From Ricordea florida (taxonomy: Eukaryota; Cnidaria; Anthozoa; Corallimorpharia; Ricordeidae): a stretch of 64,000 nucleotides of DNA. Shown here one piece after another: positions 22,604-63,601 of the stretch. Position numbers and translations under genes: made by a program. Positions within the stretch are counted from its first letter, which is position 1, and every line of letters starts with the position of its first letter. The notes below the pieces were generated by a model. The model was not told the DNA's origin. It did no database searches and saw nothing but the letters and a program-made list of their open reading frames with translations. The stretch spans positions 5,445,235-5,509,234 of the forward strand of contig OX453284.1 of assembly GCA_949710005.1 (NCBI GenBank). Reading direction: 5' to 3'.

Positions 22604-23767
22604 TTATGATACAGTGGACATTGAAAGTGTCTCCACGGTCCCTTCCCTGTTCAAAAAAGCCATCACAGGTGTGTTACTCGATGTCCTTTGTCGCTCCATC
22701 TGAACTGGCAGAGCAAGTGAGGAACCGGGCAAGAAACGAAGCCTTCCGCCCTCAGCCAACCTCCTGTGCAAACCAGATGTACTCCGCCGGATAAACCTCT
22801 GCAGCGGAAAGCACCTTCGAGCAATTCCTTGCATGGTCCGTCTCATTTCAGGGTTGCGGTAGCCGTAAACGATAGGATTGAGCCCCGAGTTTGCGTAGTG
22901 AAGCGCTTTGACTAAGGATGTCAAGCGGTAGAGAGCTGGAGGCTCCGGTAAGCGTTCCACATCGTAAGTGGCGACGACAGTCACAACAAAGAATGGAAAC
23001 CAAGCCAACATAAACAGTCCTGTGACCAGTCCTACCGTGCTGGCCACTCTTATCTCCCTATGTACTGTGGCATTGCTTTGCTCCGGACACACTCTCGATC
23101 TAGAGTTAATTGCAGTCCTGTAAATGAGCGAGTAGACCACGAACATTACCAAAAGAGGTCCAGAGAAACACAAGATAAAGATGAATGCAGAGTAGGTCTG
23201 TTCCCAATGCTCCAACTGAATAGGATAGAGTCCCGCTACAAAGGCAGAACAGCCCCATGCGATAAAGATCATAGCATGGAAAACTCCCTCGTGAATTACT
23301 CTGTGCTTCAAAGGCCAAACGATCGCGATGCACCTTTCAAGGCTAATAGCCGTGAGCTGAAAGATCGACGCACACCCCAGGAAAATGTCAAACGTTATGT
23401 AAAATTCGTAGACGAACGGGTGTAGAAGGAGTTTGAAATAATGGCAACAGTAGACATATTGCCAACATGGGATTGATATGAAACCAACCATTAAATCTGC
23501 CAAAGCAAGTCCCAGAATGAACGTGTTCGTTGTCGTCTGAAGTCTCCAGTTTTTCTCGAAAGCAGAAATAACGAGTATGTTCCCAGCAACAATAGCGACA
23601 AATGCTAAAGCATAAAACACGATACTAAGCACGACTTCAGCTGTTGTAAAATACCTGAGGCTTTGAGGCTGGGAAGAGTGTGCAACGTAAAGCGTTGTTG
23701 ACAGAGCTTCCATAGAGGAATAGTTGAGGAATGTACTTGATGCTAAAGTGGATTCTGTTTGAGACAT
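22604..23767 (-). CDS. Class A (rhodopsin-like) GPCR 1, intronless, 387 aa
   Basis: Seven-TM receptor signalling through G proteins at the plasma membrane. Start is the ATG at 23767. N-terminus has NYSS, a likely glycosylation site. Seen: TM1 GN (IVAGNILV), TM2 LALADL, Asp at 3.32 in ITFDIFL, the DRY box as ERC in SLERCIAI, Trp-Phe-Pro in TM6 (LAWFPFF), and NPIVY in TM7 followed by RNPEMRR helix 8. Asp 3.32 is the amine-binding position in aminergic receptors, but TM5 lacks the usual serines (FSGP region). The ligand therefore cannot be assigned; cnidarian genomes hold large expansions of such orphan receptors. Related to the genes at 59665 and 63676 (shared HYxNSxxNPxVY and EMRRT). Confidence 0.92.
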   Translation of the reverse strand: MSQTESTLASSTFLNYSSMEALSTTLYVAHSSQPQSLRYFTTAEVVLSIVFYALAFVAIVAGNILVISAFEKNWRLQTTTNTFILGLALADLMVGFISIPCWQYVYCCHYFKLLLHPFVYEFYITFDIFLGCASIFQLTAISLERCIAIVWPLKHRVIHEGVFHAMIFIAWGCSAFVAGLYPIQLEHWEQTYSAFIFILCFSGPLLVMFVVYSLIYRTAINSRSRVCPEQSNATVHREIRVASTVGLVTGLFMLAWFPFFVVTVVATYDVERLPEPPALYRLTSLVKALHYANSGLNPIVYGYRNPEMRRTMQGIARRCFPLQRFIRRSTSGLHRRLAEGGRLRFLPGSSLALPVQMERQRTSSNTPVMAFLNREGTVETLSMSTVS

Positions 23768-24404: not shown

Positions 24405-24417
24405 TAGTCAACCACTT

Positions 24418-24506
24418 GCCAAGTCGTTAGGAGAAAATGTATAGGGAAAAGTTGTTTCCACGTTGAAGAAAACGATTTCCCTATACATTTTCTCCTAACG
24501 ACTTGC
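24418..24506. repeat. Perfect hairpin, ~28-bp arms
   Basis: CAAGTCGTTAGGAGAAAATG followed by TATAGGGA is repeated as its exact complement (TCCCTATACATTTTCTCC, AACGACTTG) about 30 bp later. It looks like a minimal foldback MITE. Confidence 0.75.
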
Positions 24507-24969
24507 AAAGTTTGCCCCCTGGCGATCCCAGAAGCCATGGAGCGTAAAACGGGATCCGATTACTGCAAATCATCCATTCGTCATGAATGGGCGACCCTAA
24601 AACGCGGAACGACGGAATGGCGGAACGGCGGAATGGCGGAAAATAACCCCGAATCCTAAAAGACGGAACGGCGGAAAATTACTGCAAACCCTAAAAGACG
24701 GAATGGCGGAAAATTGCCGCGAATCCTAAAAGACGGAACGGCGGAAAATTACTGCAAACCCTAAAAGACGGAATGGCGGAAAATTACTGCAAACCCTAAA
24801 AGACGGAACGGCGGAAAATAACCCCGAATCCTAAAAGATGGAACGGCGGAAAATTACTGCAAACCCTAAAAGACGGAATGGCGGAAAATTGCTGCGAATC
24901 CTAAAAGACGGAACGGCGGAAAATTACTGCAAACCCTAAAAGGCGGAATAGCAAAAAAAATGACAAAAG

Positions 24970-24987
24970 AATAAAATAATAATAGTA

Positions 24988-25040
<53 letters not shown>
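24970..25040. repeat. (ATT)n microsatellite in left arm
   Basis: ATT/AAT triplet run within the left arm; the right-arm counterpart is about eight triplets longer and accounts for the arm length difference. Confidence 0.95.
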
Positions 25041-25041
<1 letters not shown>

Positions 25042-25389
25042 GAGGAATAAAATTACACTTAACAACTTCATGTATGTGTTAATCGTCAATTGGAATTTTA
25101 AACTTGCTCACTCCAAAGATCTGATTCTTCACCCGAAATCTCACCTGCTTGGAACAAAAAAAAAATCATGCATCCTCTCATAAGAAAACAAAATATGCAT
25201 TTTTAACACAGAGCGAAATGATTCAATAAAACCCCTGGGGCTGCGGCATTAAATGTAAAATGTAAATGTGGCTGTGACGTATGAAGGAGGGAAATCCAAA
25301 TGAAGACGGTGGGACTCAAACAATGTTTTTACAGCTTATATTTTCACTTTCTAAAGTGGAGGAAATTAACTGGAGGAAAAGCAAACGAA

Positions 25390-26247
25390 TCAAGCCTCCA
25401 TGCAATAGCCTGTTCGCGTGACAACGGAAGTGCTATCATTTAAATCCGGATTTATTAGCACAAATAAGAGCATACCTAGGGCCCAAACATCCACAGCTTT
25501 TAGGTCCTCTAAGGACAGCGATGATCCGCTTTGACGGAAAAGTTCCGGTGCTCGATAAGCGGGAGTTCCCCGGACAATATTTCTTGTCACCATGCGGCAG
25601 ACACTGTTAGTCTGGTTTATGGCTGAGCGGCTTTCTCCAAAATCTGCAAGCTTGCAAATTATTGGCCTTGTCTGGAACATCTGCTCAACTTCTTGTTCGT
25701 CCTTTAAAGCACAATAGTGTTGGTTGGAGACAAGCACATTGGCTGGCTTGATGTCACGGTGGACGATCTCAAGGGCATGCAGATGTGCAAGTCCTGCCGC
25801 CGTTTCTCGGGCGATCCTTTCTTGAAAGGCAAACTGTTCGACTGCCTTATTGGAATGGATGTACTGAAGAAATTTATCAAGGCTGCTCACCTTTTGTGAT
25901 ACTCCGAATGGAGCAAAGTCGAAGTACAAATATTCGAGCATCATTGCGCACGGTTCGATGCTAGCGGCTTTGAACTTAACGACATGTTCACTTGTGATAC
26001 CTTGAAGAATCTTCGCTTCTTTAAGAAACAGTCGCTTTTCATTGTCCTCGTCACTCAATAATTTCTTGATCACGACCTTCTCCCCCTTCGCTTTTGCAAC
26101 AAAAACCAATCCAAAGGAGCCACGGCCGATTGTCTCCTCCTTGTCTTGTAGAAGACTCCAGTCAAACAGTGTTAGGCCCGTATAATCTTCGATAGAGGGT
26201 TTTTCGGAATTTACCCTCCCATTTAGGGAGGGCAATTTAAAAGCCAT
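25390..26247 (-). CDS. Truncated Ser/Thr-type protein kinase carried by the palindromic element
   Basis: Predicted 285-aa kinase; ATG at 26247 chosen over a TTG upstream. Seen: glycine loop GRGSFG (41-46), VVIKK lysine (61), HRDIKPAN (163-170), ADFGES with DFG Asp 202, YRAPEL (231-236) and DVWALGML (253-260). HRDIKPAN points to a Ser/Thr or TKL-like kinase. The frame ends about 25 residues after the DVWALG box, so the C-lobe helices that normally follow (subdomains X-XI) are missing. The last ~15 residues, SVVTRTGYCMEA-TGA, are encoded by the inner end of the terminal repeat, not by kinase sequence. So this is a captured 5' fragment with an element-derived tail. The active-site residues are intact, but folding is doubtful. 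Expression unknown. Confidence 0.85.
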   Translation of the reverse strand: MAFKLPSLNGRVNSEKPSIEDYTGLTLFDWSLLQDKEETIGRGSFGLVFVAKAKGEKVVIKKLLSDEDNEKRLFLKEAKILQGITSEHVVKFKAASIEPCAMMLEYLYFDFAPFGVSQKVSSLDKFLQYIHSNKAVEQFAFQERIARETAAGLAHLHALEIVHRDIKPANVLVSNQHYCALKDEQEVEQMFQTRPIICKLADFGESRSAINQTNSVCRMVTRNIVRGTPAYRAPELFRQSGSSLSLEDLKAVDVWALGMLLFVLINPDLNDSTSVVTRTGYCMEA

Positions 26248-26796
26248 AGAATTCAACAATTACGACAAGCTATAGTCTACTTAAATATCGAATACAAAAT
26301 TTCTCTGCACGTGGCGCGAGTGTAATTGCGACGTGGCGATTTCTATGCCAGCCGTCGGGTCAATTATCTTTGGTAAAACGTGTTAGTGTGAGTTAGTTAA
26401 TGATAGCACTTCCGTTGTCACGCGAACAGGCTATTGCATGGAGGCTTGATTCGTTTGCTTTTCCTCCAGTTAATTTCCTCCACTTTAGAAAGTGAAAATA
26501 TAAGCTGTAAAAACATTGTTTGAGTCCCACCGTCTTCATTTGGATTTCCCTCCTTCATACGTCACAGCCACATTTACATTTTACATTTAATGCCGCAGCC
26601 CCAGGGGTTTTATTGAATCATTTCGCTCTGTGTTAAAAATGCATATTTTGTTTTCTTATGAGAGGATGCATGATTTTTTTTTTGTTCCAAGCAGGTGAGA
26701 TTTCGGGTGAAGAATCAGATCTTTGGAGTGAGCAAGTTTAAAATTCCAATTGACGATTAACACATACATGAAGTTGTTAAGCGTAATTTTATTCCT

Positions 26797-26797
26797 C

Positions 26798-26875
<78 letters not shown>

Positions 26876-26890
26876 TACTATTATTATTTT
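26797..26890. repeat. (ATT)n microsatellite in right arm
   Basis: Longer counterpart of 24970-25040. Confidence 0.95.
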
Positions 26891-27468
26891 ATTCTTTTGT
26901 CATTTTTTTTGCTATTCCGCCTTTTAGGGTTTGCAGTAATTTTCCGCCGTTCCGTCTTTTAGGATTCGCAGCAATTTTCCGCCATTCCGTCTTTTAGGGT
27001 TTGCAGTAATTTTCCGCCGTTCCATCTTTTAGGATTCGGGGTTATTTTCCGCCGTTCCGTCTTTTAGGGTTTGCAGTAATTTTCCGCCATTCCGTCTTTT
27101 AGGGTTTGCAGTAATTTTCCGCCGTTCCGTCTTTTAGGATTCGCGGCAATTTTCCGCCATTCCGTCTTTTAGGGTTTGCAGTAATTTTCCGCCGTTCCGT
27201 CTTTTAGGATTCGGGGTTATTTTCCGCCATTCCGCCGTTCCGCCATTCCGTCGTTCCGCGTTTTAGGGTCGCCCGTCATGAATTCTAGTTTCATAGTGTT
27301 TTCAGAATTCGTTTCTCCGTTATAACTTTCACCAAAACTATTAATCTATTGCCACAAAAAAAAAACAAACATAGAGTATGAATATATATGAATTTATTAT
27401 ATCTCTCAGTTAGTACGCGCGCTGTTTGTTTTGGTCGCCAAAATGACTCCAGAGATATAATAAATATC

Positions 27469-27624
27469 TTATTAACCTCGTTTTCTCGGTCCGTACTGTA
27501 AAATACGGATCCTCGTTTTTTCCCGTCGATTTATGGCCCAAGCGCGAAGCGCGCGGGCCATAAATCGACGGGAAAAAAACTCGGTCCGTATTTTACAGTA
27601 CGGACCTCGAACTCGATTAATAAG
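27469..27624. repeat. TTATTAACC foldback element, strong palindrome
   Basis: Starts TTATTAACCTCGTTTTCTCG and ends CGAACTCGATTAATAAG. Long inner arms (CGGTCCGTACTGTAAAATAC; TTCCCGTCGATTTATGGCCC) meet at a GCGCGAAGCGCGCG centre. Confidence 0.85.
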
Positions 27625-27802
27625 AGGTATATATACACGGGTATGTCCACAGTTTATTTCGTCTTTTCAGCTCTACGTCGACCCCTTCTCTTCTCATACT
27701 CCCGAACCCTCTGCAGGTTGTGTGCGTCGGAGACTGACTATCCTTATGAGTCTCTTCCATTCGGCCCTGTTGCTCACGGTTGAGAGCCATTGATCTGTAC
27801 AG

Positions 27803-30573: not shown

Positions 30574-33113
30574 CCCTTTGGAGCCCAGTGTCCGATATAT
30601 CGGACAGCAGAGTTGTCCGCAGTTATTTTAAGCAGCAGTCTCAAACAAAGTCGTTACCAGTCTCCAAACGATTATTTCAGCAAAAACACAAACACACGCC
30701 ATTTCGGTTAGATTGCCGCTATTTTCGTCAAATTTTTTCGATTTTGTGGGGGTTTGTTGAAAAGACAGGATTTAAAGTCCACTTGTAAACATGAGTAGAA
30801 GGCCTGTGACATATAGCACGCAGGATGTGCTCGATTATTTGGAAGGAAATTTTGCTATTCCCGAAGATGGTTTTGAGTCTGACATCGAGGGATTTGAAAG
30901 TGAAAGTGACGACGATTTGGAGCCAGAAATTATTCCGCATGCGGACCTTATGGAGCCAGATTATGAAATTGACTTGAGAAATGTTGTCATGGAAGACGAA
31001 GAAGCCGATGACACAGATAATTGTGAGTCTAGTGCAGCTATTGCTAAGTGCAACTATTCGTTCGAAGGTTTAGAATGGACAGATGCACCTGAAGAGGTAC
31101 CAGCTATTCCTGAGTTTAGAGAGAATGTTGGGCCAGCTGTAGCATGCTCTGCTGAAATGTCTCCATTGGGTTACTTTCTCGTCCTTGTTGACAACCACAT
31201 GTTGACTTCAATTGTTCGAGAAACAAACAGGTTTGCAATCCAATGCCTTACGGCGAATGGAAAAGATCCTAACTCATGGGTAGCAGTGACTTTAGAGGAG
31301 CTAAAAGCTTTTCTAGGTTTGATTATTGCCATGAGCATCCATTCTTTGCCTTCTCTGAGAGATTATTGGAAGGATGACTGGGTTTTAGGTGTCCCTGAAT
31401 TTGCAAAAGTGATGCCAAGGAACAGATTTCTGGATATAAATAGATATTTACATCTAAATGATAACTCGAAGATGCCAACACGTGAATCTCCTGATGTGGA
31501 TAAACTTTTCAAACTAAGGCCATTCCTGGAAAGCTTACAAGCTAATTTTACTCACTGCTATAATCCTCACAAGGAACAAGCCATTGATGAAGCAATGATT
31601 AAATACAAAGGTAGGACTTCTCTCAAACAGTATATGCCAATGAAACCCATCAAACGTGGTATAAAAGTGTGGTGTAGAGCAGATAGTCATTCAGGATACT
31701 TGTGTGACTTTGACATATACACTGGACGTCATCGTGATGGTATTCAGAGGGGGCTGGGCTACTCCGTTGTCACCTGCCTTTGCCGGGGAATAGAGGGAAA
31801 GTGGTACAATGTCTACTTTGACAATTTTTTCACATCATATCCTCTGCTAGAAGATCTTTATTGTAAGAAAATTCTAGCTTGTGGAACTGTTAGACAGGGA
31901 CGAAAAGAATTCCCTGCAGTTCTTTTTGACAAGAATACAATCAAAACAATGAAAAGGGGAGAGACGGTCTGGAGGATGAAGGTTCCTATCCTTGCTCTAA
32001 CATGGATAGACAACAAACCAGTGACCATTTCTGGCACAACAACTGGCATTCCTGAAGAGCAACTACCTGAAGTGCAAAGAAGGAAAAAAGATGGCACCCT
32101 TGAGAATGTTGCCTGTCCTCCCATTATTTCAACTTACAACTGCTACATGGGTGGAGTTGACAAAAATGATCAAATGAAGTCTTATTATGGCATTAACATA
32201 TCTGGAAAGAAATGGTGGACAATGGTTTTCTTTGACCTCATTGACAGGGCAATATTCAATGGAAAAGTATTGTTCAATGAATCCCCCCACACTTCAAGAA
32301 AAAGCTTGAAGGATTTCAAGGTTGATTTAGCGAAGTTGCTCATTGGTAACTTTTGTTCTCGACGAAAGCGTGGGAGGTCCTCTCTCGATAATCAACAAGC
32401 AAGGTTTGTGGAGAGGCATTTTCCTGACTTCCTGCCAATGAATGACAATGGGAGGAGGATGGAGAGAAGATGTGTCATTTGCTCTGGGGCCAACATCAGG
32501 AAAAAAACAAGCTATTATTGCCCTGACTGTGATGTTGGACTATGTGCCGCACCTTGCTTTCGCATGTATCATCAACGTTGAAAGTTATGTTGAGGTCATC
32601 AACTGAACTATTTTACTGATGTAATGCTTCTTTGTTCTTTGAACTTTAACCAATAGCATTAAATCCAGCTCATCTTAAGGAACAGTGAGATTTTGAGACA
32701 TTTTCTGAAACTTAGAGAATTATTGCGCAACTACCCAGTTGTCTGAAATCAGGCATAGAAAATCTTGAGGTTGAGTAAATTTCTTAAATGTAGAACCAAA
32801 AGAATCCCTGATAGTTAATCAATCAATCTGTGTGGTTATTGGAATTTTCATGTTTATTTTTTGACCTCCATGGCTATTTAATTATTTTATTTGAATATGA
32901 CGTAACACAGAAGTTAATAATTAAACTGTTATAATGGTATCATATCACATCAGATACCTTGCTAAAATCACTCAAAATAAATTGCAATTATTAAGGATCC
33001 TAATACTTTTTACAGAATGTGATTATACTAAAAAGCTAAAAAGATATGATAGTTTTATCTTGCTTCGTTTAAGTTTTAAAAAATCCTTTAAAATTAATTT
33101 GGGCTCCAAAGGG
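30574..33113 (+). mobile_element. Complete piggyBac element
   Basis: TIRs CCCTTTGGAGCCC (30574-30586) and GGGCTCCAAAGGG (33101-33113) match over all 13 bases and are flanked by TTAA (30570-30573, 33114-33117), the piggyBac target site. Length 2540 bp. A sub-terminal palindrome TGTCCGATATATCGGACA lies just inside the left end. The single ORF is intact, so the element could be autonomous. Confidence 0.95.
30791..32581 (+). CDS. piggyBac transposase, intact, 596 aa
   Basis: Cuts and joins piggyBac ends at TTAA sites in the nucleus by an RNase-H-like DDD mechanism. The first ~80 residues are acidic, as usual. Catalytic aspartates are visible: D266 in AIDEAMIKYKGR, D344 in VYFDNFFTSYPLL and D457 in MGGVDKNDQM. 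The C-terminus has a cysteine-rich zinc-binding domain (CVICSG, then CPDCDVGLC and PCFRMYH) that binds the terminal repeats in the family. Length agrees with the ~590-residue insect enzyme. It is transcribed from the element's left end. No stop or frameshift was seen. PGBD-like domestication is unlikely because perfect TIRs and TTAA duplications remain. Confidence 0.95.
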   Translation: MSRRPVTYSTQDVLDYLEGNFAIPEDGFESDIEGFESESDDDLEPEIIPHADLMEPDYEIDLRNVVMEDEEADDTDNCESSAAIAKCNYSFEGLEWTDAPEEVPAIPEFRENVGPAVACSAEMSPLGYFLVLVDNHMLTSIVRETNRFAIQCLTANGKDPNSWVAVTLEELKAFLGLIIAMSIHSLPSLRDYWKDDWVLGVPEFAKVMPRNRFLDINRYLHLNDNSKMPTRESPDVDKLFKLRPFLESLQANFTHCYNPHKEQAIDEAMIKYKGRTSLKQYMPMKPIKRGIKVWCRADSHSGYLCDFDIYTGRHRDGIQRGLGYSVVTCLCRGIEGKWYNVYFDNFFTSYPLLEDLYCKKILACGTVRQGRKEFPAVLFDKNTIKTMKRGETVWRMKVPILALTWIDNKPVTISGTTTGIPEEQLPEVQRRKKDGTLENVACPPIISTYNCYMGGVDKNDQMKSYYGINISGKKWWTMVFFDLIDRAIFNGKVLFNESPHTSRKSLKDFKVDLAKLLIGNFCSRRKRGRSSLDNQQARFVERHFPDFLPMNDNGRRMERRCVICSGANIRKKTSYYCPDCDVGLCAAPCFRMYHQR

Positions 33114-59664: not shown

Positions 59665-60666
59665 CTACAGATTAGATTCAGCCATATGACCCACAGTTGT
59701 TATTGCTGGTGTAGTGATGGCTGGAGCCACTCTTCGCCTCCCCCCCTGCGTCTCGAAGAGTCGTCTGCATGGACCAAGCAGTCGAGTAAACGTTCTCCTC
59801 ATCTCTGCATCACGAAATGTGTACACAAGCGGATTCATTGCGCTGTTACAGTAATGCAAACATTTCGAGAAAACAAGGAATATGTTTAGTTTTTCCAGCG
59901 GTAAGCAGCGGTAGCACAGCACAAGGACAGTACTAATGGTAAAGAACGACAACCACGACACGAGAAACAGACATGTCACAAAACCGAGCGTCATGGCTGT
60001 TCGTCGTTGCTGGCGAATGTTCTTCCTCAACTCTCTGGTTTCTTCTACATTTTGGACAGTGGGAAGGTTTGTTATGAGTGCGCGCGTGATTCTAAATATG
60101 GAGTAATTTACGAAACTGATAAGGACGCCAGGTCCCACGTAACCTACAAGTAGCAAAAATGTTGTGTAGATTTTCTTGCTGTTCGCAGTGTCGAGTGCAG
60201 GACGTACAGCTGCAATCGCAAACGCTGTCAACCACACTCCGCAAATCACCAGCGAGTATTGCACTGTCGAAAGCGTCTCGTAGCGAAACGGCCGAGAAAT
60301 GGCGACCCATCGTTCAAGACTTACTGCAATAAGATGGAATGTGGAGGCGAGCGCACTAACAATGTCAAAAGACAGGAAAAAAGTGTTGGGTGTGCCAGAA
60401 TAATTCCACTCAACCGAAATGTACATGTAGAGAGGCAATGAAACAGCTCCCACCAAAAGATCAGAGAATGCCAAACTTACAAGAAACGTGTATGTGCTTG
60501 TTCGAATTCTCCAATTTGAGAAATAAGCCGCTACCACAAATAAATTTCCAGTAATTATCGCGAACATGAGGGCGGCACAAAATGATATCTGCACGGCTAT
60601 GCCTGCTGACATGTTAGACGTGGTATCTTCGGAGTCCGCATTTTGACTGGAGTTTGTTGCCATCAT
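59665..60666 (-). CDS. Class A GPCR 2, intronless, 333 aa
   Basis: Seven-TM receptor. N-terminus has NSS and NMS glycosylation sites. Seen: TITGNLFV-like TM1 (IITGNLFVVA), LAFSDLLVG in TM2, Asp 3.32 in LSFDIVS, ERW in place of DRY (SLERWVAI), and NPLVYTFRD in TM7 followed by AEMRRTF. TM6 reads LVSWLSFF: the Trp is kept but Ser replaces the conserved proline 6.50, which is unusual and may alter activation. C-terminal tail is Arg-rich with ITTPAITT. A second Met follows the first; either could start. Ligand unknown. Closest in the window to the partial receptor at 63676 (CYRCLP/CMRCLP before TM7, RDAEMRRTF). Confidence 0.92.
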   Translation of the reverse strand: MMATNSSQNADSEDTTSNMSAGIAVQISFCAALMFAIITGNLFVVAAYFSNWRIRTSTYTFLVSLAFSDLLVGAVSLPLYMYISVEWNYSGTPNTFFLSFDIVSALASTFHLIAVSLERWVAISRPFRYETLSTVQYSLVICGVWLTAFAIAAVRPALDTANSKKIYTTFLLLVGYVGPGVLISFVNYSIFRITRALITNLPTVQNVEETRELRKNIRQQRRTAMTLGFVTCLFLVSWLSFFTISTVLVLCYRCLPLEKLNIFLVFSKCLHYCNSAMNPLVYTFRDAEMRRTFTRLLGPCRRLFETQGGRRRVAPAITTPAITTVGHMAESNL

Positions 60667-63601
60667 GAGGAATACAACACCAGAGCCGTTTGACGTTTGA
60701 TGCGAAAAAAGGTTGTCTTGATATTCTTGGAGGAGGAATGTTAAGTGTGTTTGTCGCCTCTACATGGAAGCTATTATTGAAGACAACAAAGCGTTTCTGG
60801 ACGAAGTATATGTAATTTTCCTCTTGAAATTTCTATTTGTGTGGGTGGCCCAATCGGTTTACAGGTTCTTTTTGATCATAAGCCAGCTAGGAAGCCGGGA
60901 ACAGTTTATGGTTTAGAAGATGTTTCACAGACACAATCACGAAAACTTCAAGCGATCAAAAGGAAGCTTACTTGCTTTAGCACTCCTTTCCATGACAAGT
61001 CAACGTTTGTTTCAGTGACAGAACTTATCGCTGATCTTATAAAGGTTAACGCCTCGAGTTGCTGAAAACGATGATCAAAAACCCTAAAAGGCAAACCGCA
61101 CTTTTCTCTTATCGACCTTTTCTCCAGGTGTCTTGCGTTGTCTGTTAATTATAAATAGGCTAGACGAAAATCCTTTGTCATTACTGCGAGACAAACGGAA
61201 GAGCTCTTTAAAAAGGAAGATATAGATTATCCTTTTCTGATAAATTCAAAGGTTCAAAACACACACAGCTGCGTCGTTTCTCGTTTTCTTCATCTATGCA
61301 AATGGCGCTAAATAATGTAAGTGCATGCTTTGCTCGTCCATAGCCACTTATTAAACAAAAGCTCTTCACTAACTTCTCAATCTCTGTCCCACATTTGAAA
61401 ACGCATTGCCTCGAAGCAGCAATAATTGTTAGTGTTCCGTGGTTATTGTTGCAGTAAAGAAAAAAAAAGAATGAATAACCCAATACGTTCAAAATCTGAT
61501 GAGTTGACTTGACACAAGAAATGAGCGGAGTTCAAAAAGTTTAATTAACTTTCTTCATTGCAAGAAACCGCGCTTGTCACGAGGGGCACTGTTGACAAAG
61601 CCGCATATTAACTGTCAAGTAAAATCAAAATGATATTTCTTTCGGCCAGTTTTCCGGTCATGGTAATGAAATTTGGAATTAAACGTTTTAATGGACGGGT
61701 CTATGGCGAATTTATCACCGTCTGCATGACAACAACTTTAAGTCGGGGAAAAGATTTGTCCCCAAATGTAATGAATCTGAGCATTTCCGCCTTTGAGTGG
61801 AGTTCAGTAACAATGTGGCAGTACCTAGCGGCAGGTTGAAGTTTGATGTTCAGAAAATAGGCTTTTTTTACTTTTCGATGTTTATCCTTGAAGTTTTTCA
61901 GTTCAATCTATTTTTGTTCCAGGTCAATAGTTAACTGTTCTCGAGGTGGGTGTTGCCAGACTAAATCAGCCGAGCTGAGGGTCTCCCAGGAAGGGTCCTT
62001 GTTCCCTTGTTCCCTTCCAAAATTGCCCTATGTTCCCACGTTCCCACACATTTTCGTTAATTGTTCCCCTTTGTAATTTTTCGAATTTTGTTCCCCTGTT
62101 CCCAAAAATTGGCTAATGTTCCCTTGTTCCTTCGATATTTTGCCAATGTTCCCTTGTTCCCCAAAACCACTGGGAGTTCCTCCGAGCTGTGGGTAGAAAT
62201 GTTTTTATGGCAAGCCGTTTGCCAAGTAAACGCAAACACAACACAACAAGAGAAACATAACGATCTCCCAATAGCGTTTTTAATTGAAATAAAAGCAAAT
62301 AAAGAAAGGCAAGAAAAGTCTCTCGCTTTCAAAATGTCATTTTAAGTCAACTGCCAATTGTAAACGAGAATATTATTTTCTTTCTATAGGAAAGACAAAA
62401 GACAATGAATAAAGTACAGAATCTGTTGAATTTTTTGTGTAAATAAGAAAAACTTATTAGATACCTAAAATATATTAGGACACAACAAAACCTTTGTGAC
62501 AATCCTGAAACTTTTCACTAACTACGTCAAAAGTTGCAGTTTTGTCTTTTTTGCGTATCTCTTTTAGTTCTGAGCCATTTGAAGTAAGTCCGCAAAAAAA
62601 GTCTGAGAACCTGATTGAAGTTTTGTTACCCGTAACAAAACGTTAATATTGCCCTCGTAATTTCAAGCGTTATTACCAGCTATTTTACTCAATTTACACG
62701 TTCATTGCACTGTTTAATTTTTTCACCCCAACATCTACACAACAGCTTTCGCCATTTGGTACTTGCTTTATCATGAAACATAATTTCTTTCTGCCAACAA
62801 ATATAAGAAATACAATTTGAAATTAATTAAGGATTATAGGGAACCTTAATGCTACAATCACATTTTGTTTTCCTTATAAGGGTTCGTGCCTCCACCTAGT
62901 TTATACCAATTAATGACCATATTAGTCACTCTAGGGCGGCTCCATAATAAATAATAACTTAACAAATTAAACATTTCTGTATCGCTCTTTCCAGATGTGA
63001 TCAAAAGCGCTTTAGAAAAATTTAATATAAAATACAACATTATTCTATTCTAAATTTAAAGTGATTCGTTAAAAAGAAAGGACTAATAAATTTCTTAAAA
63101 CAATTTAAGGAAGCAGCATTTCTAATGTCAGCAGGCAGTTTATTCCAAAGCGCAGTGGCCGGCAGCAGCAGTAAAGGAGCGAGCACCAAGTGTAGGCAGC
63201 ATTTTCTGTGCAGGAGACAGCAGCAGAATACTGTTGTTCAAGAGTAGGAGCAACTACAGAATACAGGGCCACCTTGGTCCACCTCGTTTACAGGTGTCGG
63301 AGGCTTTTGTAGAACGAAGCAGATAACAATGGACACTATTGTTCAGTGGTATGTAAATAAGTGGCCCTGTATTCTGTAATTTAGCCCCCAAGAGTATTTG
63401 CAAATCTCAAATGACACACATGCAAATCTTGAATAACAGTAACAGTTATCGACATTCACTCGATATGATTGAGTGATATCAATTAAATGAATTTTTTGTA
63501 AGCTGATAGAGTGGCTTAATAAGTTTTTTCGTCTAGAGAGGGGTCGCTAGAAGCTCATTGTCAAAGGGGGGATGGCTTAATAGAGAATTTACAGTAAACC
63601 T
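60667..63601. other. Interval between GPCR 2 and GPCR 3
   Basis: Contains the TGTTCCCTTGTTCC repeat (61978-62190), an inverted pair TACAGAATACAGGGCCAC / GTGGCCCTGTATTCTGTA at 63257 and 63361, and otherwise AT-rich DNA. Small frames at 60841, 61630 and 61208 lack recognisable features. Confidence 0.4.
61978..62190. repeat. TGTTCCCTTGTTCC short-repeat element
   Basis: GTTCCC occurs more than ten times. The possible ends TCTCCCAG and CTGGGAG are inverted. Looks like a MITE with arrayed internal motifs. Confidence 0.55.

What the first reader, a model, noticed from the sequence alone, without database searches (positions are those of the whole stretch)
24589..27274. Animal Pack-MULE-like palindrome carrying a truncated protein kinase
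Two ~0.86-kb arms, nearly identical except for microsatellite length and one base seen, flank a 958-bp centre with a kinase ORF. The TSD is a perfect 9 bp (GTCATGAAT). Long repetitive TIRs with 9-bp TSD are known for foldback/Mutator-superfamily elements. Gene capture by such elements is well known in plants and little described in cnidarians. The ORF reads through from kinase sequence into the arm and takes its last ~15 codons and stop from it. Whether the fragment is expressed or acts as a decoy or siRNA source is open; the palindromic transcript could make dsRNA.
Basis: partly seen in the sequence, partly recalled or inferred. Interest (0 to 1): 0.87.

Follow-up and report, generated by a model that had tools for sequence, protein, structure and literature searches.

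The report
Coral jumping gene carrying kinase fragment
A piece of what is most likely a coral genome holds a foldback jumping gene with a cut-short protein kinase inside; the same kinase piece sits in dozens of related jumping-gene copies, so it was most likely picked up once and then spread, rather than being caught by this copy.

Summary
Inverted arms at 24589-25440 and 26399-27274 differ at one base plus microsatellite length. They flank a 958-bp centre with a truncated kinase ORF, between perfect 9-bp duplications (GTCATGAAT). It is a non-autonomous, foldback-type DNA transposon; an assembly artefact is unlikely, because a sibling palindrome with the same junction but another 9-bp duplication lies on another chromosome. 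Of 27 loci where both ends were read, 20 have exact 9-bp duplications, all different.

The interpretation needs correcting. The kinase is not this copy's own catch. All 45 places with a scored kinase hit of 70% identity or more can be tied to this element family; outside it the best scored hits reach about 51%. One copy (C8) carries the whole kinase gene in broken pieces. The simplest reading is one acquisition, then deletions. The original inverted repeat is a ~360-bp array of 35-bp units; the long arms are a secondary extension.

A second tandem-repeat TIR family has a copy holding a fragment of a different paralogue. I found no transposase inside the first family, so Mutator membership is unproven. 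Fly Ssk-FB4 and nematode Tm1 are close precedents.

The parts
24580..24588 (.). target site duplication GTCATGAAT, left copy
24589..24952 (+). true terminal inverted repeat, left: GGGCGACCCTAAAACGCGGAAC... followed by about nine 35-bp tandem units
   Evidence: shared by ordinary copies
24953..25041 (+). spacer with (AAT)n microsatellite, left arm, 89 nt
25042..25440 (+). inner arm, left: an inverted second copy of the right inner region (5' flank of the kinase gene), i.e. the TIR extension
   Evidence: absent on this side in ordinary copies
25441..26398 (-). centre: kinase gene fragment plus 139 bp upstream of the ORF; the part 25779-26398 is shared with the 94% subfamily
25390..26259 (-). kinase ORF of 289 codons (ATG at 26247), Pkinase profile 3-192 of 263, last 16 codons and stop from the left arm
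25440..25441 (.). junction between left inner arm and kinase, shared with the sibling palindrome at C4:7711442-7713705; about 2 bp of microhomology by eye
26399..26797 (-). inner arm, right: original position next to the kinase 5' end, present in ordinary copies
26798..26910 (-). spacer with (TTA)n microsatellite, right arm, 113 nt
26911..27274 (-). true terminal inverted repeat, right, 35-bp tandem units, identical to the left one
27275..27283 (.). target site duplication GTCATGAAT, right copy

Best explanation
This is one recent insertion of a multicopy, non-autonomous foldback-type TIR transposon family of a cnidarian, most likely a stony coral. An ancestor of the family acquired a whole kinase gene without introns (kinase domain plus a conserved C-terminal domain) next to its right end. 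Internal deletions then produced shorter forms, which spread by cut-and-paste with 9-bp target duplications, driven by a transposase supplied in trans, most likely of the Mutator (MULE/Phantom) group. In the lineage of this copy the right subterminal region was copied inverted onto the left end, probably by template switching during repair. This turned ~360-bp tandem-repeat TIRs into ~860-bp arms and cut the kinase after the GMLLFVLINPDL motif. That palindromic form then transposed at least once more. Shown: arms, TSDs, family, shared cargo, shared junction, whole kinase gene (broken) in one diverged copy and its 3' part in another, deletions. Inferred: transposase class, template switching, single acquisition, direction and order of events, host taxon.
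For: anatomy; 83 and 151 terminal matches; reversed control 0 and 15; 20 of 27 loci with exact, different 9-bp TSDs; sibling palindrome TSD TTCTGAATA; ordinary copies are TIR - left body - kinase N-half - inner - TIR, with no left inner arm; sibling C4 shares the left junction and has an internal deletion of about 308 bp; 135 scored of 298 candidates; 68 hits of 70% identity or more form 45 clusters; 42 lie within 5 kb of a listed TIR end; two of the other three adjoin left-body matches, the third is copy L072, whose end is 7 kb away; C8 copy covers the whole kinase gene in broken pieces, C11 copy its 3' part; window and C4 copies are sisters, 96/87 support, bootstrap not settled; Tm1, Tetris, Galileo TIR extension, Ssk-FB4; passages.
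Against: No MULE (48 hits) or Merlin-type (150 hits) domain was found in the family: MULE hits within 8 kb of 83 typed family-1 ends, 0; nearest of 146 typed Merlin-type hits to 74 typed ends, 33 kb. One search listed only about 100 of its 151 ends, so divergent autonomous copies may be missed. Seven of 27 loci lack an exact 9-bp TSD: one has 8 bp, two share a TSD across a composite, two are imperfect, two have none. The C13 copy shows 8 bp. Part of the C11 copy is withheld (N), so a transposase there cannot be excluded.
Confidence: 0.8

Rival explanations
1. Private Pack-MULE event: this copy itself captured a kinase fragment from a host gene.
For: The kinase domain is cellular in type and truncated, and the junction reads through into the arm.
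Against: The same kinase region is in all 45 clusters tied to the family, and no separate gene above about 51% identity was among the scored hits.
Confidence: 0.03
2. The kinase is a resident accessory gene that serves the transposon (for example by modifying transposase or host repair) and only degenerates in non-autonomous copies.
For: One diverged copy has the whole gene and another its 3' part. Close relatives in the protein database stand for many sequences (P0016 15, P0070 18 member sequences; these may be repeated sampling). In the young lineage 5 of 6 substitutions fall at third codon positions (1/0/5 over two overlapping comparisons). Kinase paralogues lie near TIR ends of this type more often than a uniform expectation (4 loci against about 0.2).
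Against: No intact full-length member of this subfamily was among the scored hits in the genome. The large 94% subfamily shows no third-position bias (about 10/5/7) and carries stops. The genomic context of P0016 and P0070 is unknown.
Confidence: 0.17
3. The mover is not a MULE but another transposase group with 8-9 bp duplications (Merlin, Rehavkus, or an unclassified one).
For: 8- and 9-bp TSDs both occur. Merlin-type domains are abundant in the genome (150 hits; 8-9 bp TSDs of Merlin recalled). Rehavkus has 9-bp TSDs and a minisatellite near one TIR (PMC6446971 passages).
Against: None of the typed Merlin-type hits lies in a family member either. 9-10 bp TSDs with long repetitive TIRs are typical of foldback elements assigned to MULEs.
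Confidence: 0.3
4. Old segmental inverted duplication or assembly artefact.
For: Palindromes are prone to misassembly.
Against: Perfect TSD, arms that differ, and a sibling with the same junction and another TSD on another chromosome. No reads could be checked.
Confidence: 0.02
5. The family is a derivative of a Polinton, because a 19-kb copy contains one.
For: C13:9058444-9077620 holds an integrase and an A32-type ATPase between the arms.
Against: The Polinton sits inside with its own inverted ends and a 6-bp TCCTCC duplication; the two flanks abut to contiguous kinase sequence. Polinton integrases are common in the genome (117 scored hits).
Confidence: 0.02

Closest known systems
Ssk-FB4 of Drosophila melanogaster (PMC8277862; abstract, outline and passages read)
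   Same: Foldback-type element with 9-10 bp TSDs and ~700-bp TIRs carrying a host coding sequence, several copies with distinct TSDs; that paper calls them Pack-MULEs of flies
   Different: Fly, found in population data and with a coding function argued; here most likely a coral, dozens of copies, mostly broken kinase, no donor found
Tm1 Mutator/Foldback family of root-knot nematodes (PMC3169594; passages read)
   Same: Long TIRs of short tandem units, 9-bp TSDs, non-autonomous forms with possibly host-derived sequence, nested insertions
   Different: Tm1 has an identified Phantom-type MULE transposase, and its histone-hairpin forms have no obvious protein-coding cargo; different repeats
Galileo of Drosophila (PMC3573991; passages read)
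   Same: TIR extension by recruiting adjacent internal sequence in inverted orientation, from either side, plus tandem units in some TIRs
   Different: P-element superfamily; no kinase in the passages read
Plant Pack-MULEs (PMC6446971 and PMC3310237; passages read)
   Same: Non-autonomous long-TIR elements with gene fragments, TSDs around 9 bp
   Different: Plants; many different host genes captured, whereas here one kinase gene in the first family
Rehavkus (PMC6446971; passages read)
   Same: 9-bp TSD, minisatellite near a TIR, animals
   Different: Known there from arthropods and annelids with a PHD-finger transposase; I had no model to search for it

Membership tests
Foldback-type (FB-like) element | long TIRs built of short tandem repeats | tested here: met
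   35-bp units, about 9 copies per end, identical ends
Foldback-type (FB-like) element | 8-10 bp target site duplication | tested here: met
   20 of 27 loci exact 9 bp, one more 8 bp
Mutator (MULE) superfamily | 9-11 bp TSD and long TIR | tested here: met
   not exclusive to MULEs
Mutator (MULE) superfamily | MULE transposase in an autonomous member with the same TIRs | tested here: inconclusive
   48 MULE hits in the genome, none within 8 kb of 83 typed family-1 ends; one family-2-like end at C23:38267 has a MULE hit 2.1 kb inside, 0.17 such pairs expected
Pack-MULE / Pack-TIR | non-autonomous, carries a fragment of a cellular-type gene between TIRs | tested here: met
Pack-MULE / Pack-TIR | identifiable parental copy not associated with the TE | tested here: not met
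   all 45 clusters of 70% identity or more are tied to the family; best others about 51%; searches score only the best candidates
Pack-MULE / Pack-TIR | capturing family: other copies with different cargo | tested here: not met
   copies examined share kinase sequence or lack cargo; met only for the second family, where two copies differ in the centre
Merlin | IS1595-type transposase in a family member | tested here: inconclusive
   150 hits; nearest of 146 typed to 74 typed family-1 ends is 33 kb away, C11:14552833
Polinton | outer ends are those of the Polinton, 6-bp TSD | tested here: not met
   nested insertion with its own ends and a TCCTCC duplication; outer ends are family-1 TIRs with an 8-bp duplication
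Rehavkus | Rehavkus-type transposase with PHD finger | not tested
   no model of it was searched

The most novel reading that the evidence does not exclude
Anthozoan foldback-type transposons and one family of kinase genes without introns are tied together. At least two TIR families with different ends each have copies carrying a kinase of this gene family, both have inserted into members of it (two insertions only 7-8 bp apart at the HRDLKP codons of identical duplicates), and the kinase may be a resident gene that helps the elements rather than accidental cargo.
Probability: 0.15. Interest if true: 0.75.

Novelty: new member of a known kind. Interest (0 to 1): 0.45.

Why it matters
[quoted passage not shown] A foldback family of a likely coral with about 44 kinase-bearing elements would extend that phenomenon to an early animal branch. 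Its deletion and TIR-extension series in one assembly lets the order of gene uptake, internal deletion and arm growth be studied directly.

Tried and rejected
Rejected: Polinton origin of the family (nested insertion). Rejected: artefact or segmental duplication. Rejected: capture private to this copy. Tried without success: finding the transposase through PF10551 and PF12762 over the whole genome and by position; a variant terminal pattern gave 9 ends and no pairs. The left-body search gave 45 matches and showed no transposase. The 9155-bp pair C4:19906658-19915812 looked autonomous but holds a Pao-type retrotransposon. Flanks of family-1 copies: 2 of 62 distinct flanks, both of one copy, match the kinase family (79-900 bases each, against p49 and the 120 proteins), so targeting of kinase genes is not general. 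Codon-position counts give no sign of selection in the large subfamily and a weak one in the young lineage. Paper searches for a coral or cnidarian description of this family showed none in their listed rows (listings, top rows only).

Full report
What is there. The window copy is a 2686-bp unit (24589-27274) flanked by GTCATGAAT. Its arms are 852 and 876 nt: identical over the outer 364 nt, one difference in the inner 399 nt, and a microsatellite stretch of 89 against 113 nt. The outer 364 nt consist of a unique start (GGGCGACCCTAAAACGCGGAAC) and about nine 35-bp units. The centre is 958 bp. The ORF on the minus strand has 289 codons (285 from the ATG at 26247) and matches the protein kinase profile from position 3 to 192 of 263. 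It keeps the GxGxxG, VxIK, HRD, DFG and APE motifs (read from the translation; motif names recalled). It ends after GMLLFVLINPDL, with 16 codons and the stop supplied by the left arm.

The window lies in an unnamed 538-Mb assembly in 48 contigs, G000:C13:5445235-5509234. The best named relatives are from stony corals: the kinase is 94% identical to Oculina patagonica P0121 over 64% of its length, and a neighbouring receptor is 65% identical to Oculina P0214. The host is therefore most likely a stony coral (inference).

The family. The inner arm has 40 scored matches of 65 candidates in the genome. The terminal 37-mer has 83 matches with up to three mismatches, against 0 for the reversed control. 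A looser 21-mer has 151 against 15, of which about 100 were listed. Both ends could be read at 27 distinct loci: 20 have an exact 9-bp duplication, all different; one has 8 bp; two neighbouring copies share one duplication across the pair; two are imperfect and two have none.

The ordinary copies (1.8-2.2 kb; about 91-94% identical to the window's inner arm) are built as TIR - left body of about 370-390 bp - kinase N-terminal half (window 25779-26398) - inner region - TIR. Only the tandem-repeat TIR is inverted there. I therefore take the long palindromic arms as a secondary state, seen in the window copy, C4:7711442-7713705 and C13:9058444-9077620. The window and C4 copies share the same junction and are sisters in a tree (96/87 support; bootstrap not fully settled) but have different TSDs, so the palindromic form has itself transposed. 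The C4 copy lacks about 308 bp of the kinase. At the junction about 2 bp of microhomology can be seen by eye. C15:3848415-3850066 has left-body matches in both orientations, which suggests extension from the other side as well. Recruitment of internal sequence into longer TIRs, from either flank, is described for Galileo (PMC3573991 passages).

The kinase. The genome search with the window kinase scored 135 hits (298 candidates). Of these, 68 are at least 70% identical and form 45 clusters; 42 of the clusters lie within 5 kb of a listed family end. Two others adjoin left-body matches, and the last is copy L072, whose end is 7 kb away. Two of the clusters belong to one element (C13:9058444-9077620), giving about 44 elements. 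I found no free copy; the best hits that I could not tie to the family are about 51%. Only the best candidates are scored, so this is not proof of absence.

The C8 copy (C8:19526821-19528434) covers all of P0016, an unnamed 539-aa database protein that is 81% identical to the window kinase, in broken pieces at 67-76%; the C11 copy covers residues 235-508. So one copy holds the whole gene: kinase domain plus a C-terminal domain with no Pfam match. Paralogues in this genome that run over most of P0016 are 34-42% identical, and shorter matches reach 51%. Of three that I listed, two are open frames of 583 and 521 aa in one piece and one is broken into two frames. Substitutions by codon position are 9/8/17 against the C8 copy, 0/0/3 and 1/0/2 against the C13 and C4 relatives, and about 10/5/7 against the large subfamily. 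So there is no sign of constraint in the large subfamily and at most a weak one in the young lineage.

A second family. L060 (C1:8772997-8775431) has TIRs starting GGTAGTTTCGAAAACGAAGCAC with 22-bp units. That pattern has 57 matches with up to three mismatches, control 4. Copy C2:2268963-2271343 has a 10-bp TSD, CAAATTTCAC. It shares its outer parts with L060 at 95-96%, but the centres differ: L060 carries the N-terminal fragment of another kinase paralogue (46% to the window kinase), the C2 copy does not. L060 itself has no exact duplication.

A third copy of the second family (C4:26436610-26439309) lies inside a kinase paralogue, with TSD ACCTAAAACC at the HRDLKP codons; the joined flanks read in frame. 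A family-1 copy (C4:26934160-26936096, TSD CCAGGCAAC) lies 7-8 bp further on in a duplicate of that gene, identical over 171 of 171 bases. Kinase paralogues lie within 5 kb of a listed end at four loci, against about 0.13 and 0.09 pairs expected under a uniform model for the two end lists (59 of the 67 kinase hits below 70%, 119 and 83 ends, typed from outputs and not complete). I regard this as suggestive only, since both C4 cases involve one duplicated gene, and only one of the family-1 copies whose flanks were tested (2 of 62 flanks) lies in a kinase gene.

What moves it. None of 48 MULE-domain hits is within 8 kb of 83 typed family-1 ends; one family-2-like end has a MULE hit 2.1 kb inside, on C23. 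The nearest Merlin-type hit to a family-1 end is 33 kb away (146 of 150 hits against 74 ends). By structure the family matches foldback elements with 9-10 bp duplications. These are Mutator-related in the nematode Tm1 (transposase identified) and are argued to be so for fly FB4 (PMC3169594 and PMC8277862 passages), but Galileo shows that the same anatomy can belong to the P superfamily. I put about two in three on the Mutator group.

The 19-kb copy is not an autonomous element. It contains a Polinton inserted with a 6-bp TCCTCC duplication; the left flank ends GATTGTCTCCTCC(A) and the right flank begins TCCTCCTTGTC, which is contiguous kinase sequence in the window (window 26128 onward).

Verdict. 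A true and well-preserved mobile element whose cargo is family property. It is a new member of a known kind, foldback-type Pack-TIR elements, although the parental gene that surveys of such elements look for was not found. I find the number of copies, the readable series of deletions and arm extension, and the parallel in a second family worth a follow-up. The claims about expression, decoy action and small RNAs remain untested.

Noticed in passing
G000:C13:9058444-9077620 (L031-L033): A kinase element of this family with a Polinton nested in it (6-bp TCCTCC duplication); Polinton integrases are common in this genome (117 scored hits, mostly open frames).
   Followed up: partly
window 30776-32581 (+): Open 601-codon piggyBac-type transposase frame (PF13843, E=6.6e-84, with a C-terminal zinc finger) about 3.5 kb from the finding; its ends were not mapped.
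   Followed up: partly
G000:C4:26436610 and C4:26934160 (L073, L074, L024): Two TIR families inserted 7-8 bp apart at the HRDLKP codons of identical duplicates of one kinase gene.
   Followed up: yes
L037 2702-7353 (G000:C3:3048701-3053352): Two family-1 copies 20 bp apart share the 9-bp duplication ACCAGAGAT at their outer ends, as if the pair moved as one composite.
   Followed up: partly
G000:C1:25436630, C5:19636510, C8:11111575: Weak kinase and C-terminal-domain matches (29-31%) inside open frames of 1118, 1155 and 1979 codons at three places with equal scores: possibly a kinase-like protein encoded by a young mobile element.
   Followed up: no
L049 3338-3828, and L050: A pair of 96% identical kinase genes on two chromosomes with a 153-bp tandem repeat upstream (measured in L049; similar repeats in L050); similarity runs nearly to both ends of the fetched pieces, so the gene may be mobile.
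   Followed up: partly
G000:C1:18424377 and C1:18425136: A kinase fragment 0.76 kb from an end of a third, related TIR type (GGGTGTTACGAAAACTAAGACC).
   Followed up: no
G000:C15:3848415-3850066: A 1.65-kb family-1 element with left-body sequence in both orientations, perhaps a second kind of arm extension.
   Followed up: no
window 24414-24511 and 27467-27625: Short palindromes on both sides of the element (86% and 82% self-complementary), probably unrelated small inverted-repeat elements.
   Followed up: no
window 22604-23767 (-) and 59665-60759 (-): Two single-frame rhodopsin-type receptor genes (PF00001), the first 65% identical to an Oculina patagonica receptor.
   Followed up: partly
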